From positions 1 through 64,000 of the forward strand of contig JAUZRN010000010.1 in the NCBI GenBank assembly GCA_030950375.1: a stretch of DNA of 64,000 nucleotides. The letters are read 5' to 3'. The DNA is from Rhodothermus sp. Lineage in GTDB: Bacteria > Bacteroidota > Rhodothermia > Rhodothermales > Rhodothermaceae. The translations under genes were made by a program, and so were the position numbers. Of this stretch, positions 51,591 to 58,776 are shown piece after piece; the first letter of the stretch is position 1, and each line of letters opens with the position of its first letter. The notes beneath the pieces were generated by a model, which saw only the letters and a program-made list of their open reading frames with translations, searched no databases and was not told the origin of the DNA.

Positions 51591-52286
51591 CTAAAAGCCT
51601 CGGCCATAAGCACGAAGCACCATACCGTTCAATGCCATACCAGCTGGTGAACATAGATAGATGCAGAGCTCAGCCAGTTCGGCCGCCGTGACACCAGCAC
51701 CCTCTTGGCGCTCATCATATCGAATAACCGAAGGCGCAATGGCATGGACGGTGATGCCCTGCACGGCCAGCTCCGAACCGATCGCTTCAACCAGCCGCAC
51801 CACGCCCCCTTTGGCTACCGAGTAGGCAGCCTGGCGCACACGTCCACGATCGGCTCCCTGCATGGATGCAAACGCAATCAAGCGCCCTCCGTTACGGCCG
51901 CGCATCAGGCGCGCTGCTTCACGAAAGCACAGAAACGTCGAAGTCAAATTGGCATCCAGCATCGCCCGCCAGTCTTCCAGCGTCATTTCCAGAAAGGGGC
52001 GTTCCGCCCACACACCAGCGGCATGCACCAGCACATCCACATAGCCAAAGCGATCCCAGATTTTACCAAAGCAGGCCGCTACCTGTGCTTCATCGGCCAG
52101 CTCGGCATGAAAAACGGCTCCGTCAACCCCTTCCGGAAGCTGCAACTTCCGTGCTTGCTCAGCCGTGCGAACCACTGCCGCCAGACGAGCGCCCTCCTGC
52201 GCAAAGCGCTGGAGGAGTTGCTGTCCCAACCGTCCGCCCGCTCCGGTGATGACCACCACTTTATGGGCCAGGGCACGCGTCTCCAT
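51591..52286 (-). CDS. Short-chain dehydrogenase/reductase
   Basis: A 231-residue classical SDR. It has the cofactor motif VVVITGAGGRLGQQLL (TGxxxGxG), NAG-equivalent VLVHAAGVW, the catalytic Ser in AFASMQGADR and the YxxxK motif in AAYSVAKGG. The site usually filled by an Asn (NLTSTF) is also present. The substrate is not apparent. It is the last gene of a co-directional run with GT4 and GH130 genes, 56 bases after the glycosyltransferase, and may act on the same metabolite or be unrelated. Confidence 0.9.
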   Translation of the reverse strand: METRALAHKVVVITGAGGRLGQQLLQRFAQEGARLAAVVRTAEQARKLQLPEGVDGAVFHAELADEAQVAACFGKIWDRFGYVDVLVHAAGVWAERPFLEMTLEDWRAMLDANLTSTFLCFREAARLMRGRNGGRLIAFASMQGADRGRVRQAAYSVAKGGVVRLVEAIGSELAVQGITVHAIAPSVIRYDERQEGAGVTAAELAELCIYLCSPAGMALNGMVLRAYGRGF

Positions 52287-52342: not shown

Positions 52343-53374
52343 TCAAGCAGCCGAGCGTCCTTGATGCCGACGCAGTACCTCTTCGTAGACGCGCAGATAG
52401 TCAGCGACCATACGCGCACGGCTGAACCGACGCGCCACATATGCCCGAATCTTTGCCCGGTCGAGTCGACGCAGACGGGGCAGCGCAGCCACGGCCTCCT
52501 CCACGGTATGCACCAGCACACCCGTTTCCCCATCTCGGATGATTTCAGGCATGGAGCCTCGTGGACGCGCCACAACGGGCGTACCACAGGCCATCGCTTC
52601 GACCACACTGAGCCCAAAGGGCTCATTGAAGTTGATCAAATGCAACAGCGCATAGGCGCCGCCCAGCAGTCGATCCCGCTCGACTGGGCCTACCGATCCC
52701 AGATACTGAATCTGCGCTCCGTCAATAAAAGGAGCAACTTCCTGTTCGAAGTAATGCTGATCCTGAATAATGCCGGCCATCTTCAGCGGCATACCGCTCT
52801 GACGAGCCACCTCGATGGCTTCACGCACCCCTTTGTCGGGATGTATCCGACCAAAAAAGAGTAGATAGTCGCCTGGCTCCGTACGCAGCGTAAACGACTC
52901 CAGTTCGATTCCGTGGTAAACGGTCGCCACATAATCCAGGTCGGGATGTCGATCGGCGTTACTGATCGAAACGTAGTAGGTGCGACCGTTGTATTTGCGA
53001 TAGACTGGTAAAATGCGCTCCGAAGAAAACCCGTGGATGGTGGTCACTACCGGCGTACGCACCAGTCCGCTATAGCTCAACGGCAGAAAGTCAAAGTGAT
53101 TGTGAATCAGGTCGAACTCGTCGGCGCGTTCGAACACCTCGCTAATGTGCAGACATTCCCAGACTTTAGGGTCCAGCGAGGGATCTTCTTCGTAAGGACG
53201 CGGGCACACTCCGATCAGCCGGGCACGCGTCTGTGAGTCCGCCGTCGCAAACAGTGTCACCTCGACGCCTTGATCGACCAGCCCTTCAGTGAGCAGCCAG
53301 ACAACCCGCTCCCAGGGACCGTAGTGGCGGGGCGGCACGCGCCAGGCAATCGGAGCCAGCATCGCAATGCGCAT
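52343..53374 (-). CDS. Glycosyltransferase family 4
   Basis: A 343-residue GT-B glycosyltransferase. The N-terminal half has MRIAMLAPIAWRVPPRHYGP and DLIHNHFDFLPL, and the C-terminal half has LLFFGRIHPDKGVREAIEVA, the family EPFGLSVVEAMACGTPVVA motif (Ex7E) and GSMPEIIRDGETG. These are typical retaining GT4 features using a nucleotide sugar. The acceptor cannot be told. It starts 3 bases after the single-domain GH130 gene, so the two are surely co-transcribed, which suggests one makes and the other breaks the same glycosidic product. Confidence 0.93.
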   Translation of the reverse strand: MRIAMLAPIAWRVPPRHYGPWERVVWLLTEGLVDQGVEVTLFATADSQTRARLIGVCPRPYEEDPSLDPKVWECLHISEVFERADEFDLIHNHFDFLPLSYSGLVRTPVVTTIHGFSSERILPVYRKYNGRTYYVSISNADRHPDLDYVATVYHGIELESFTLRTEPGDYLLFFGRIHPDKGVREAIEVARQSGMPLKMAGIIQDQHYFEQEVAPFIDGAQIQYLGSVGPVERDRLLGGAYALLHLINFNEPFGLSVVEAMACGTPVVARPRGSMPEIIRDGETGVLVHTVEEAVAALPRLRRLDRAKIRAYVARRFSRARMVADYLRVYEEVLRRHQGRSAA

Positions 53375-53377
53375 GGC

Positions 53378-54370
53378 TCACGCTCGGGATTTGCCATCAT
53401 AGCGACCGTTCAACAACCAGTCGAGCAGCTCACTCAGCCGGGCTTCGGCGACCGCCACGCACGTATCGGCGGCACCGTAGTAAAGACGCAGCGTGTCGCC
53501 TTCCAGCACACAGCCGCAGGGGAAGACCACATTGGGCACATCCCCTATGCGCTCGTACGGAGCCCGCGGTCCCAGGATCCACCCCGGGGCCCGCCGAATG
53601 ACCCGTGCGGGATTTTCCAGGTCCAGCAGAGCCATGCCCACGCGGTAGATGTCGCCCGCTACGGTAGTGCGCACGCCATGATAGAGCAGCAGCCAGCCCT
53701 CAGGCGTCTCAATAGGTGGACAGGCAGCCCCGATCCGCACATGATCCCACCAGATGCCCGGCCGCGGCCGCAGCACCACGCGCGGCCCACTCCAGTGCCG
53801 CAGATCAGGCGAGCGGCTCAACCAGATGGCCGGGTGCGTTTCGCGACGCGTGCTGGATGTACGGTGCAGCAGCACCCAGTAGCCCCCAATCTTCCGCGGA
53901 AAGAGCACTCCATTTTTATCCTCTGGCGGCATCAATAACCCGCGCCGCTCAAAGGTGCGAAAGTCTTCGGTCAGGGCCAACGCAATAGCCGGCCCCTCCT
54001 CGGAAAAGGCCGTGTAGGTGACCGCATAGCAGCCCATCTCTTCCAGCCATACAATGCGCGGATCTTCAATGCCCCAGGCTTCCTCAGGCCAGTGGTTTGG
54101 ATCAGGAACCAGCGTCGGCTCCGGATCAATCGTCCAGTCAGTTAACCCATTGGGACTGCGCGCCACCGTCAGGTGCGACACGCCCCGGTGATCCTCCACC
54201 CGCACCAGTAACAGCGTTTCGCCTGTGTCCAGACGTACAGCCGCCGCATTGAAAACGGCATTGCAGGGATACGGCCAGTCGTCAGCGGTCAGAATCGGAT
54301 TTCCTTCGTAGCGTTGAAACAATTCGCCTACCTGTTGAGGAGCGGGCAGCACTCCGTGATCGCGCATCAT
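53378..54370 (-). CDS. GH130 family glycoside phosphorylase (single domain)
   Basis: A 330-residue five-bladed beta-propeller of family GH130, whose members phosphorolyse beta-1,4- or beta-1,2-mannosides to mannose 1-phosphate. The catalytic acid region is GIEDPR (Asp103) and the phosphate-binding and later family marks are NGVLFPRKIGGYW, ETPEGWLLLYHGV and IGDVPNVVFPCG with LYYGAAD. The presence of the phosphate-binding pattern suggests a phosphorylase, not a hydrolase, but specificity cannot be told. Rhodothermus marinus is known to have characterised GH130 mannan phosphorylases; whether this is one of them cannot be told here. 30 bases separate it from the double GH130 gene upstream. Confidence 0.92.
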   Translation of the reverse strand: MMRDHGVLPAPQQVGELFQRYEGNPILTADDWPYPCNAVFNAAAVRLDTGETLLLVRVEDHRGVSHLTVARSPNGLTDWTIDPEPTLVPDPNHWPEEAWGIEDPRIVWLEEMGCYAVTYTAFSEEGPAIALALTEDFRTFERRGLLMPPEDKNGVLFPRKIGGYWVLLHRTSSTRRETHPAIWLSRSPDLRHWSGPRVVLRPRPGIWWDHVRIGAACPPIETPEGWLLLYHGVRTTVAGDIYRVGMALLDLENPARVIRRAPGWILGPRAPYERIGDVPNVVFPCGCVLEGDTLRLYYGAADTCVAVAEARLSELLDWLLNGRYDGKSRA

Positions 54371-54400: not shown

Positions 54401-56539
54401 CTAATTTTGCTGCAACAGAACGGTTAGCAGATCGTCCATTGGTATCTGTGCGCCGAAAATGCGGCTATCAGCAGCCGCATAGGGAATGATCAGATGCTGT
54501 TGCCACACATAATTTGCGCAGGCAAACAGCACATTGTCTACCCCCAGCTCTGGATCACCCACTTTCTCAATATCGCCACGAGGTCGCATCAGTGGCTCCA
54601 GGCGGGCGACAACCGGATCAGACCGGTTAAAATCCAGCAGGGCTGCCGCCAGGTCATATTCGCGATGTCCTTCCCAGTCGAGATGGCCCTGATGATAGAT
54701 CATCAGGAAACGTCGCTCGCCCAAGGCTATGGGCGGTCCCCCAGCGCCAATCCAGGAAAGCGCAAACTCCCGATATCGATAGCTGGCCATCAACAGTCCC
54801 CGGCTATGGTAGGGTCCTTCGGGCCGATCCGCTTCGGCCAGATGAATGGCCATGGGATGTCGCCCGTCAATGGGCCGGTGCAACAGCAGCCATTTACCAT
54901 CGACGGATTCCGGCAAAAGCGCCGGGTTCTTATTGTCCACCTCATTGATATCGCCAGGAATCGGCCCATGCAGCTCCCAGTGGAGAAAATCCTGCGTGGT
55001 AGCCAGGCAGATATGCACGCGCCCCACAAATGAGGGGAAACGAGGGTGCTCGCTACTATAGCCCGTGTAGAACAGGTAGTAGGTGTCGCCAATTTTTGTA
55101 CAGCGAGCATCCTCTGCGCCCAGATCATGAAAGACAGCATCAGGACGAATTACAGGCTCTGGCCATCGCCGCACCAGCTCCAGCGTTGGCGTCAGCACCG
55201 CCAGCCCCAGCGACGACGGTGCATGTCCGGCCGGACTTCCCGCAGTTCCCTGGGCCCGGTAGATCATCACGCAGGCACCGCCGGCTGCCCGAAGCCGCGT
55301 GCGTTCGGCCTCAGTAAGCTGCCAGGCCTCCATGAGGCGCTCCAGTTCTTCACCGGCCTCTATGAGCACGGCCGCTGGATTCAGCACAACGCGCGACTCC
55401 CAGGGATGCTGTGGCTCGGGCTCAAGCACCGGCTGCCCACCGTGCAGGCGATCGACGCAGATTGACGGCGGCTTCTCGATGGTGCGCAGGGCACGTCCTC
55501 GATTGCACGGCTCCATATAAACCCGAGGCATCGTCCAGCTATGCCGCTGCTCTTCCAACACAAAATCAATAACATCTTGCAGGGCTGCCACTGCGTGCCC
55601 AATCACTTTGTCTGCCGCCCCATAGTAGAGGTGGAGCTGTCCGTCAATCACAACAGCGCCCTCCGGAAATACCACATTAGGCACATCCCCCTCTCGCTCG
55701 AAAGAGCGCTCAGGTTCCAGGATCGGCACACGCGCCCGGGCTATTGTTCGCTGCGGATCGTCCAGATCAAGCAGGGCCACGCCAGCGCGGTAGGTGTAGC
55801 GATCGTCCACGCCATGGTAGATCAACAACCAGCCTTCAGGTGTTTCGATCGGTGGGGGACCCGCCCCGATTTTCTTACGCTCCCAGCGCCAGGCTGGCCG
55901 CAATACCACATGCTCGTCCAGATCGGCCAGGTGCTCGGACCAGCGAGTAGCTGATCGATGAAGCAGCTCATCCCAGTCCTCGAAATAGATCAACTGGATG
56001 TCCGGCTCAATACGATGCAACAGGGCCAGCTTACCCCCGATACGGCGTGGAAAGAGCACCGCATCTTTGTCACGCAGAGGCGGGCCAATCACACCATGCT
56101 TTTCGACCTGTGCGAAGTCCGTCGTCGAGGCCAACCCGATGCGCACACCATCACCCGCGCCAAACGCAGGCGTGCTGAGCACCGTGTGCACGATCCAGTA
56201 GCGTCCCTCAAGAAACGTAAGGCGCGGATCCTCAAGCCCATAACGGTCAAAATCCTCGCCAGGCGTCAGCAGGGGAGTTTCCCGCCAGGTAAAATGTATC
56301 CCATCGGTACTGGTAGCATAACCGAGCGATGAAATGTACGGTTCGAAGCCGTAAGCAGGCTCACCAGGCCCAGTATTCGGTAAAGGAAAACGCCGGTAGC
56401 CGGCCGGAATGGCGCGAAAGACCAGGTGTATCTGCCGCCCATCGTACCAGGCGCCCGGATTGAATACCGCACCCGATGCCCAGCTCAGATCAGCACGGGG
56501 GGTCAACACCGGAATATTTGTCCGTCGAAACAGCGACAT
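54401..56539 (-). CDS. Double-domain GH130 protein
   Basis: A 712-residue protein with two GH130-like propellers in tandem. The first (about 1-335) is canonical: GLEDPR (101-106, Asp104), DAVLFPRRIGGK, ETPEGWLLIYHGV, REGDVPNVVFPEG and LYYGAADK. A linker of about 45 residues leads to the second (about 380-712), whose matching sites are changed: GAEDARC (474-480, Asp477) without the Pro, GDPELGVDNVLFACA, and IPYAAADSR. The second domain could be catalytically altered, substrate-binding or specialised. The ATG at 56539 is preceded by AAGGGAAA. Normal GH130 proteins are 300-400 residues. Confidence 0.9.
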   Translation of the reverse strand: MSLFRRTNIPVLTPRADLSWASGAVFNPGAWYDGRQIHLVFRAIPAGYRRFPLPNTGPGEPAYGFEPYISSLGYATSTDGIHFTWRETPLLTPGEDFDRYGLEDPRLTFLEGRYWIVHTVLSTPAFGAGDGVRIGLASTTDFAQVEKHGVIGPPLRDKDAVLFPRRIGGKLALLHRIEPDIQLIYFEDWDELLHRSATRWSEHLADLDEHVVLRPAWRWERKKIGAGPPPIETPEGWLLIYHGVDDRYTYRAGVALLDLDDPQRTIARARVPILEPERSFEREGDVPNVVFPEGAVVIDGQLHLYYGAADKVIGHAVAALQDVIDFVLEEQRHSWTMPRVYMEPCNRGRALRTIEKPPSICVDRLHGGQPVLEPEPQHPWESRVVLNPAAVLIEAGEELERLMEAWQLTEAERTRLRAAGGACVMIYRAQGTAGSPAGHAPSSLGLAVLTPTLELVRRWPEPVIRPDAVFHDLGAEDARCTKIGDTYYLFYTGYSSEHPRFPSFVGRVHICLATTQDFLHWELHGPIPGDINEVDNKNPALLPESVDGKWLLLHRPIDGRHPMAIHLAEADRPEGPYHSRGLLMASYRYREFALSWIGAGGPPIALGERRFLMIYHQGHLDWEGHREYDLAAALLDFNRSDPVVARLEPLMRPRGDIEKVGDPELGVDNVLFACANYVWQQHLIIPYAAADSRIFGAQIPMDDLLTVLLQQN

Positions 56540-56649: not shown

Positions 56650-56689
56650 AAAAACATGCCGGAATCCAGCACAAGGCCAGATCCCGGCA
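56650..56689 (-). terminator. Possible terminator after GH3 gene
   Basis: On the minus strand TGCCGGGATC pairs with GATTCCGGCA (56689-56680 with 56666-56657, one G-T pair), followed after two bases by five T (56654-56650). It lies 27 bases after the GH3 stop and would split the GH3 gene from the GH130 genes. Confidence 0.55.
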
Positions 56690-56715
56690 CAGCCCCCCGC
56701 AGCCAACGATGCCTT

Positions 56716-58563
56716 TCAGTAGGTCAGGCCATAACCGTAGGGAAACAAAGGATCGTAGTCTTCATCGCCCACATTGAGGGGAATCTGATCCATCGAACGC
56801 GGCCAACTAAAGGGTAGCTTGCCCGTTGGAGCAAAATCCCCAAAAATGACGTCGGCCACGCCATCCCCTTCGGTGCCGGGAAGCCAGGCCGCAACGAACG
56901 CGTCGGCCATCTCCAGTACCTCGTTAATGATCATCGGCCGGCCGGAAATGAGAATGACGACCACCGGGACTCCGGCTTCTTTCAACCGCCGCACCACAGC
57001 CACATCGTCCGGATCCAGGGCGAGATCAGAGCGGTCTCCGAGAAATTCGGCATAAGGGCGCTCGCCAATTACTGCAATGGCTACATCGGCACCGGCCACC
57101 CCGGTACCATCTTCCGAATAGGTCACCTCCGTGCCGGGTTTCACCGCCTTACGAATCGCCTCCAGAATTGTGGTGCCCTCCGTGATGTCGCCACTACCAC
57201 CCTGCCAATCGATCGTCCAGCCCCCTGCCTGATAGCCCAGGTTGTCGGCATGTAGCCCGGCCACATGGATACGCTCCAGATTTTTGGGAAGCGGCAATGT
57301 CTGATTTTCGTTCTTCAGCAGCACCATCGACTTGCGTACCGCTTCACGCGCCACAGCACGGTGCGCTGCCGAGCCAAACTCCGTCCACAGGCTTCGGTCG
57401 GCAAACACGTGTTCGGGACCGTCCATAAGTCCCATGGCGAACTTGACGCGTAGGATACGTAGGACTGCGTCGTCGATACGCGCCATCGGTACCCTTCCTT
57501 CCTCCACCAGCTCCTTCAGCAACTGAAAAAATTCTCGGTAACGGGTGGGCACCATGGCCATGTCAATGCCTGCATTAATTGCCAGCTCGATAGCCGTTTT
57601 GTAGTCGGAATGCACCTGATCAATTGCGTTGTAGTCAGAAATGACAATCCCCTCGAATCCCAGCTCGTTTTTCAGCACATCGGTCAGCATGTACTTGTGA
57701 GCGGTCATCTTGACGCCGTTCCAACTGCTGTAGGATACCATAATGGCTCCCACACCAGCCTGGATGGCGTCGATGTACGGACGGATGTGAATGCGCCGGA
57801 AGGTCGCCTCATCCAACCGCACATCACCCTGATCCAGCAAAGCGCCCTGCGGCCCACCAGTGCCAAAGGCCGTACCACCGTCGCCGGCAAAATGTTTGGC
57901 CGTTGCCAGTACTGCCAGCGGATTATGCAACCCGCCCTTCTGTAGCCCCCGCACCGCAGCCGCTCCCAGCGTGGCCACCAGCTCCGGATGCTCCGCGAAA
58001 CTCTCATAGGTCCGCCCCCAACGTTCATCTCGAGCCACCGCGATACAGGGCGCAAAATTCCAGTGGATACCCGTAGCCCGCATCTCGATAGCGGTAATGC
58101 GATAGACCCGCTCCACCAGCTCCGGATCGCGCGTCGCCCCCAGCCCGATATGGTGTGGGAAGACTACAGCACCTTCGACATTGCTGTGGCCATGAACAGC
58201 ATCAATACCATAGAGCAGCGGAATGCCCAGCCGCGTGCGCAGCGCAATAGCCTGCAGACTATCGTACACATTCGTCCAGGCCTCCAGACTGTTCCCATCA
58301 GCCGGATCTGAATTGCCTCCACTCAAAATAGAGCCCAGATAATAGGTCTGAATGTCATAAGGATCCCGCAGAAAAGCCTGCTCGGCCTGAATCATCTGGC
58401 CGATTTTCTCCTCCAAGGTCATCTGTTCCAGCAGAGCGCGCGCTTGCTTGTCATAACGCGAAAGGGGAGGGAAGGCGGTCGTTGCTGCAGGCTGCCTGTC
58501 CGGACGCTGACAGCCGACCGCTACCAGACCAAGCATAAACCAACCGATTATCAGGTGCTTCAT
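56716..58563 (-). CDS. GH3 family beta-glycosidase, lipoprotein
   Basis: A 615-residue exported glycoside hydrolase of family 3. A lipoprotein-type signal (hydrophobic stretch then AVGC at about residue 18) suggests membrane anchoring. The (beta/alpha)8 domain has [19 protein letters not shown] and the nucleophile Asp in [14 protein letters not shown]. The C-terminal alpha/beta domain includes [18 protein letters not shown] and [20 protein letters not shown]. This form lacks the extra fibronectin-like domain of larger enzymes. Upstream frame to 58659 is dismissed because of the signal peptide. Substrate may be a beta-glucoside or related sugar released in the periplasm. Confidence 0.92.
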
Positions 58564-58776
58564 GATGTTCCTACAGGTTGGGAGTGAATTGCGGACTACT
58601 TCGTGCCAGCCGTCCACTTCCACAAGAGGCCTCCAGATAGGCTGGAACGACCAGCCCAACTAATTCAATTCATTTTACAAAAAAATGAATCCACACGCAA
58701 CTCCCGCTATGGTCTCCATCCAGAAAAGGGACCGAGAACAAAGCGAGCTGCTGTCTGTTTGCGTGCACACGTTAGC

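What the first reader, a model, noticed from the sequence alone, without database searches (positions are those of the whole stretch)
54401..56539. Tandem GH130 protein with a diverged second domain
Two propeller domains are fused. The first has all the canonical sites (GLEDPR, phosphate-site segments), the second keeps the acidic pair but changes EDPR to EDAR and its late motifs. This could be an active/inactive pair with the second domain used for binding, or a new specificity.
Basis: partly seen in the sequence, partly recalled or inferred. Interest (0 to 1): 0.6.

Follow-up and report, generated by a model that had tools for sequence, protein, structure and literature searches.

The report
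Fused pair of mannoside phosphorylase domains
A heat-loving Rhodothermus bacterium makes one protein from two old, separate sugar-cutting enzyme genes that sit side by side in its relatives; both halves look active, so the second is not a dead binding domain, and the fusion itself was already mentioned in passing in a 2020 paper.

Summary
Window 54401-56539(-) encodes one unbroken 712-aa protein with two GH130 five-bladed propellers (D1 aa 1-340, D2 aa 341-712), intact in six other genomes of the genus, so it is no frameshift or assembly error. It arose by fusion of neighbouring genes: in more than ten related genomes D1 and D2 are separate genes, nearly always adjacent, mostly beside a sugar ABC importer. 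D1 is closest to the beta-1,2-mannoside phosphorylases Teth514_1788/1789. D2 is not a decayed copy of D1 but a separate, uncharacterised GH130 lineage. "EDAR" is no sign of decay: active Lin0857 has it. All mannose-binding and catalytic positions of D2 are conserved in 25/25 sequences. The real oddity is Trp596 (25/25) where phosphorylases have Lys/Arg for phosphate, without the glutamates of GH130 hydrolases. Best reading: two active, complementary beta-1,2-mannoside enzymes in one cytoplasmic protein, D1 a phosphorylase and D2 probably a phosphorylase with an altered phosphate pocket. The two-domain protein was noted, untested, in R. marinus in 2020 (PMC6987092).

The parts
54401..56539 (-). 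Fused double GH130 protein, 712 aa, no signal peptide seen, cytoplasmic by inference
   Evidence: intact in 6 relatives
55520..56539 (-). D1 (aa 1-340): GH130 propeller, beta-1,2-mannoside phosphorylase type; N27, R42, E103-D104, K158, R176, K223, Y241-H242, D310
   Evidence: PDB hits 9fj8 and 7fip, E 5e-62 and 3e-59; NCBIfam BManbPhaseBMBP 377 bits against cut-off 450 (whole protein); site table
54404..55519 (-). D2 (aa 341-712): GH130 propeller of a separate lineage; N387, R428, E476-D477, K537, R555, W596, Y615-H616, D691
   Evidence: PF04041 5e-28; model pLDDT 85, pTM 0.88; closest fold 9fj8 Teth514_1788, TM 0.84 by target; site table
55460..55541 (-). Junction region around RHSWTMPRVYMEPCNRGRA, conserved in the genus; D2's former start may be M342 or lie near LRTI
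   Evidence: fused junctions; inference for the former start
55109..55111 (-). D477 codon, candidate catalytic acid of D2
   Evidence: aligned to D104 of D1 and D142 of BT3780
54752..54754 (-). W596 codon: Trp where phosphorylases have Lys/Arg (UhgbMP K212, D1 K223)
   Evidence: 25/25 D2 sequences W; K or R in all phosphorylases compared; ungapped in HMM alignments
54929..54931 (-). K537 codon, equivalent of BT3780 K199, the beta-1,2 linkage lysine
53378..54370 (-). Third GH130 (330 aa), 30 bp downstream; nearest solved TM1225, keeps the lysine (DKNG)
52343..53374 (-). GT4 glycosyltransferase, start 3 bp after the third GH130
51591..52286 (-). Short-chain dehydrogenase, end of the likely operon
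56716..58659 (-). GH3 (RmBgl3C-type beta-glucosidase), upstream neighbour
56655..56691 (-). Terminator-like hairpin (16 pairs, then TTTTT) between GH3 and the fusion: the fusion may start its own transcript
   Evidence: consensus match only, number of such sites not above shuffles

Best explanation
The protein is a natural fusion of two adjacent genes of a putative beta-1,2-mannooligosaccharide utilisation operon (LacI regulator, solute-binding protein, two permeases, an exported (alpha/alpha)-barrel protein, D1, D2, MsmK ATPase). Both propellers are catalytic. D1 phosphorolyses beta-1,2-mannosides: phosphate held by K158, R176 and K223 attacks the anomeric carbon while D104 drives protonation, giving alpha-mannose 1-phosphate. 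D2 binds mannose in its -1 site the same way (N387, D477, D691), keeps the beta-1,2 lysine K537, and most likely also uses phosphate, but in a changed pocket (K537, N538, R555, Y615, H616, with W596 in place of the third base). D1 and D2 probably differ in chain length or acceptor, as Teth514_1788 and 1789 do, and fusion keeps the two steps together. Shown: architecture, operon ancestry, conservation, fold. Inferred: linkage, phosphorolysis by D2, complementary specificity.
For: Unbroken conserved fusion. D1 and D2 are adjacent separate genes, gap mostly -2 to 43 bp, next to the ABC importer genes in most split loci. Closest solved relatives of both are Teth514_1788/1789. All catalytic and -1 site residues of D2 25/25, and the K199-equivalent lysine 25/25. 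D2 has phosphorylase letters R555 and H616 and lacks the hydrolase glutamates E227/E268. dN/dS about 0.04-0.08 in both halves between species with intact D1. The window genome keeps the importer operon (C18) without its D1 and D2, so the fusion is the only copy. Precedent for a complementary pair with a GT4 gene nearby: Teth514_1786-1789.
Against: D2 lacks one of three phosphate-binding basic residues, invariantly. In the tree of 38 rows D2 falls next to the GH130 hydrolases (87/80, long branches). NCBIfam's beta-1,2-mannobiose phosphorylase model matches D1 below its curated cut-off. No assay exists. The fusion's own locus has no importer and stands beside GH3, GT4 and another GH130, so its present substrate may differ from that of the ancestral operon. 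In G003 and G005 the importer operon keeps D1 but not D2, and in G001 the fused D1 is dead, so the two halves are not always needed together.
Confidence: 0.55

Rival explanations
1. D2 is an active hydrolase or transglycosylase rather than a phosphorylase: W596 has taken away phosphate binding and water or another sugar is the acceptor.
For: K/R->W596 in 25/25; hydrolases also have a non-basic residue there (L in the alignment); D2 groups with the hydrolases in the tree, 87/80.
Against: The hydrolase bases E227 and E268 are absent (P556, A599); R555 and H616 are phosphorylase letters (G and N in hydrolases); known GH130 hydrolases are secreted, this protein has no signal peptide.
Confidence: 0.2
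2. Active/inactive pair as first proposed: D2 is a pseudoenzyme that binds mannan chains or steadies the protein.
For: Altered phosphate site; D2 is lost from the importer operon in some species.
Against: Every catalytic position 25/25; same purifying selection as D1; D2 occurs without any D1 nearby in G440 and G395; where one half of the fusion died (G001) it was D1, while D2 stayed 80% identical.
Confidence: 0.15
3. The fusion works in the synthetic direction with the GT4 gene, building or trimming a mannose-containing cell glycan from mannose 1-phosphate or GDP-mannose.
For: Tight coupling of the third GH130 and GT4 (3 bp); a GH130-GT4-GH130 gene group recurs in Bacteroidota; a GH130 mannoside synthase, Uhgb_MS, is in the PDB.
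Against: D1 and D2 derive from an importer operon, a catabolic setting; GT4 enzymes are retaining and would make alpha links (general knowledge).
Confidence: 0.1
4. Frameshift or assembly error joins two genes.
For: The two genes are separate and adjacent in relatives.
Against: Fused in seven genomes of the genus and in two of another family; fused rows form one group in both trees.
Confidence: 0.01

Closest known systems
Two-domain GH130 protein beside RmBgl3C (Rmar_2616) in Rhodothermus marinus DSM 4252/4253 (PMC6987092)
   Same: Same gene order: GH3, GH130 proteins of which one has two domains, GT4, SDR; the orthologous locus by description
   Different: That paper only mentions it; no activity, domain analysis, ancestry or active-site comparison given; no later paper found
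[quoted passage not shown]
   Same: Neighbouring pair of GH130 genes with an ABC importer and a GT4 gene; closest solved relatives of D1 and of D2
   Different: Separate proteins; both have K/R at the third phosphate position, D2 has W596; D2 is only 28% identical to 1788 in the fold alignment
GH130 beta-1,2-mannosidases BT3780 and BACOVA_03624 (PMC4599007)
   Same: Same fold, same linkage lysine, non-basic residue at the W596 position
   Different: They have Glu227/Glu268 as base and lack the R and H kept by D2; secreted
Lin0857, beta-1,2-mannobiose phosphorylase of Listeria innocua
   Same: GIEDAR motif and lysine; shows EDAR is compatible with activity
   Different: Single domain; Arg at the third phosphate position

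Membership tests
GH130 (PF04041) for D1 | Profile match over the curated cut-off, with the N/D/D mannose site | tested here: met
   (173.8 bits for D1)
GH130 (PF04041) for D2 | Profile match over the curated cut-off and propeller fold | tested here: met
   98.4 bits against 26; model matches GH130 structures first
GH130 mannoside phosphorylase, D1 | Three basic phosphate-binding residues and catalytic Asp | tested here: met
   K158, R176, K223, D104 (numbering of UhgbMP R150/R168/K212 from my knowledge, spacing agrees)
GH130 mannoside phosphorylase, D2 | Three basic phosphate-binding residues | tested here: not met
   K537 and R555 kept, third replaced by W596 in 25/25
GH130 beta-1,2-mannosidase (hydrolase), D2 | Glu pair (BT3780 E227, E268) and signal peptide | tested here: not met
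   P556 and A599 at those places; N terminus shows no signal sequence by eye
beta-1,2-linkage specific GH130 | Lys equivalent to BT3780 K199 | tested here: met
   K158, K537, and K in the third GH130; R in beta-1,4 enzymes TM1225 and RaMOP
beta-1,2-mannobiose phosphorylase equivalog NF052550 | NCBI score of at least 450 bits | tested here: not met
   377 bits for the whole protein, 129 for D2
GH130 enzyme activity, either half | Phosphorolysis of beta-mannosides to alpha-mannose 1-phosphate | not testable with these tools
   needs an assay

The most novel reading that the evidence does not exclude
D2 founds an undescribed GH130 subfamily that stands between phosphorylases and hydrolases: it keeps two of the three phosphate-binding bases, has lost the third to tryptophan and has not gained the hydrolase glutamates, and so carries out a reaction or uses an acceptor not yet known in GH130, within a natural two-active-site enzyme.
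Probability: 0.25. Interest if true: 0.6.

Novelty: new variant of a known kind. Interest (0 to 1): 0.35.

Why it matters
GH130 is a textbook case of phosphorylases and hydrolases separated by a few phosphate-site residues. D2 offers a conserved, naturally occurring state from a thermophile with only one of those changes, so that step becomes testable. The fusion would also be a two-site catalyst for beta-1,2-mannosides, which are hard to make chemically. Otherwise this is ordinary carbohydrate metabolism.

Tried and rejected
Assembly error or frameshift: rejected. EDAR as loss of function: rejected. D2 as a recent internal copy of D1: D1 and D2 are separate clades, and holding them together is marginally rejected (AU p 0.043). 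Other double GH130 proteins: in 297 genomes of the phylum, 105 of them with GH130, no listed frame outside Rhodothermus was seen to carry two matches (list truncated, so not exhaustive). Literature on the phosphate residues by number found nothing open; I used the spacing. Promoter scan uninformative. A model of the full-length protein was not run; the two jobs went to D2 and to the operon protein U480.

Full report
OBSERVATION. The finding's coordinates give one open frame of 712 codons on the minus strand. Both halves match Glyco_hydro_130, and the own-genome search places three GH130 domains in the genome: the two in this protein and one in the next gene. The same fused gene is intact in six other genomes of the genus at 75-95% identity, and a fused copy also exists in two genomes of another family of the order, G036 and G203. 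In maximum-likelihood trees the fused rows form one group for D1 (82/92) and for D2 (87/61), so a single fusion is likely but not certain.

ORIGIN. In most relatives D1 and D2 are separate genes in the same order, with gaps from -2 to 43 bp (146 bp in one), in L032, L033, L035, L036, L009, L010, L074, L075, L077, L079, L082; they are about 3.4 kb apart in L034. In most of these loci the order is solute-binding protein, two permeases, a protein here called U480, D1, D2 and often an MsmK-type ATPase, with a LacI-type regulator in L038 and L039. In Rhodothermus the fused copy lies elsewhere, between a GH3 gene and (in most species) a third GH130, then GT4 and SDR. The importer operon itself shows stepwise loss in the genus: D1 and D2 present in G001 and G002 (and G004 by search), D1 only in G003 and G005, neither in the window's genome, where LacI, SBP, permeases, U480 and MsmK remain on contig C18. 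So here the fusion is the only D1 and D2 of the cell. That this loss reflects redundancy is inference.

D1. Its best solved relatives are Teth514_1788 (9fj8, 213 bits) and Teth514_1789 (7fip, 204 bits), both proven beta-1,2-mannoside phosphorylases (PMC4264767). It has all the residues expected: N27, R42, D104, K158, R176, K223, Y241, H242, D310.

D2. It is about 28% identical to Teth514_1788 and its AlphaFold model (pLDDT 85, pTM 0.88) has that enzyme as its first match (TM 0.84 by the target's length). Over 25 sequences, two of them from outside the class, N387, R428, E476, D477, R479, K537, R555, Y615, H616 and D691 are invariant. K537 matches BT3780 K199, the residue tied to beta-1,2 linkages (PMC4599007). 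The one striking change is W596: K or R in all phosphorylases compared, W in all D2, aligned without gaps by profile too. By spacing this is K212 of UhgbMP; that K212, R150 and R168 hold phosphate is my knowledge of that structure and agrees with the three basic residues described in PMC4599007. A second change, D159 to N538, removes a negative charge from the same pocket, so its net charge may be unchanged; this is inference. The hydrolase glutamates are absent (P556, A599), and R555 and H616 are as in phosphorylases. D2 therefore fits neither published signature. In a tree with reference enzymes D2 is its own clade (100/100) and stands beside the hydrolases at 87/80 with long branches; I give this little weight.

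WHICH HALF CAN BE LOST. dN/dS is about 0.04-0.08 for both halves among G000, G002 and G003, with dS near saturation, so only the rough equality is meaningful. In G001 the fused D1 has D104->E, R42->Q, D159->G, R176->H, H242->C, D310->N and a deletion of DVPN, on a branch of 0.46 against 0.13 for its D2. G001 still has intact separate D1 and D2 genes. This is a natural control: these sites can be lost when a domain dies, D2 has not lost them, and D2 of the fusion is kept there without a working partner.

CONTEXT. The third GH130 ends 3 bp before the GT4 start. A group of P2-like GH130, GT4 and a GH130 of about 490 aa, usually after another large protein whose start resembles a glycosyltransferase (not tested by profile), recurs in L102, L103, L105, L108 and in altered form in L104. 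A terminator-like hairpin stands between GH3 and the fusion, so the GH3 link may be weaker than gene order suggests; the 2020 paper predicted co-transcription.

KNOWN OR NEW. PMC6987092 states that beside RmBgl3C there are two GHs, one of which contains two domains, GH130 by CAZy. Nothing else on it was found in the open library. So the architecture is known and uncharacterised; the split origin, the dead D1 in G001, and the W596 lineage appear not to be described, as far as this library goes.

Noticed in passing
L101:11389-12834 (window genome contig C18); L038:8089-9561: U480, a lipoprotein-like 480-aa protein next to D1 in nearly all importer loci, has no Pfam or NCBIfam family over cut-off; its model and profile match 7tem, the uncharacterised exported protein YPO2471 (E 3e-98 by profile, 35% identity), then cellobiose 2-epimerases and GH9/GH127 barrels. 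It may be a new glycosidase or epimerase family.
   Followed up: partly
L041:5567-7741 (G001): The fused protein of this Rhodothermus species has a first domain that lost its catalytic Asp and most of its active site while the second stayed intact.
   Followed up: yes
L102:2639-8363, L103:4757-10725, L105:3117-8985, L108:496-6871: Recurrent gene group in Bacteroidota: a large possible glycosyltransferase, P2-like GH130, GT4, and a GH130 of about 490 aa; suggests a beta-mannoside made and recycled in the cell.
   Followed up: partly
L107:3772-5643 (G006): The GH3 gene upstream of the fusion looks broken into several frames in this genome while the GH130 genes are intact.
   Followed up: no
L086:698-1132 (G239): D2 reduced to about 150 aa with stops, near a contig end, beside an intact D1.
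   Followed up: no
window 56655-56691: Strong terminator-like hairpin between GH3 and the fused gene.
   Followed up: no
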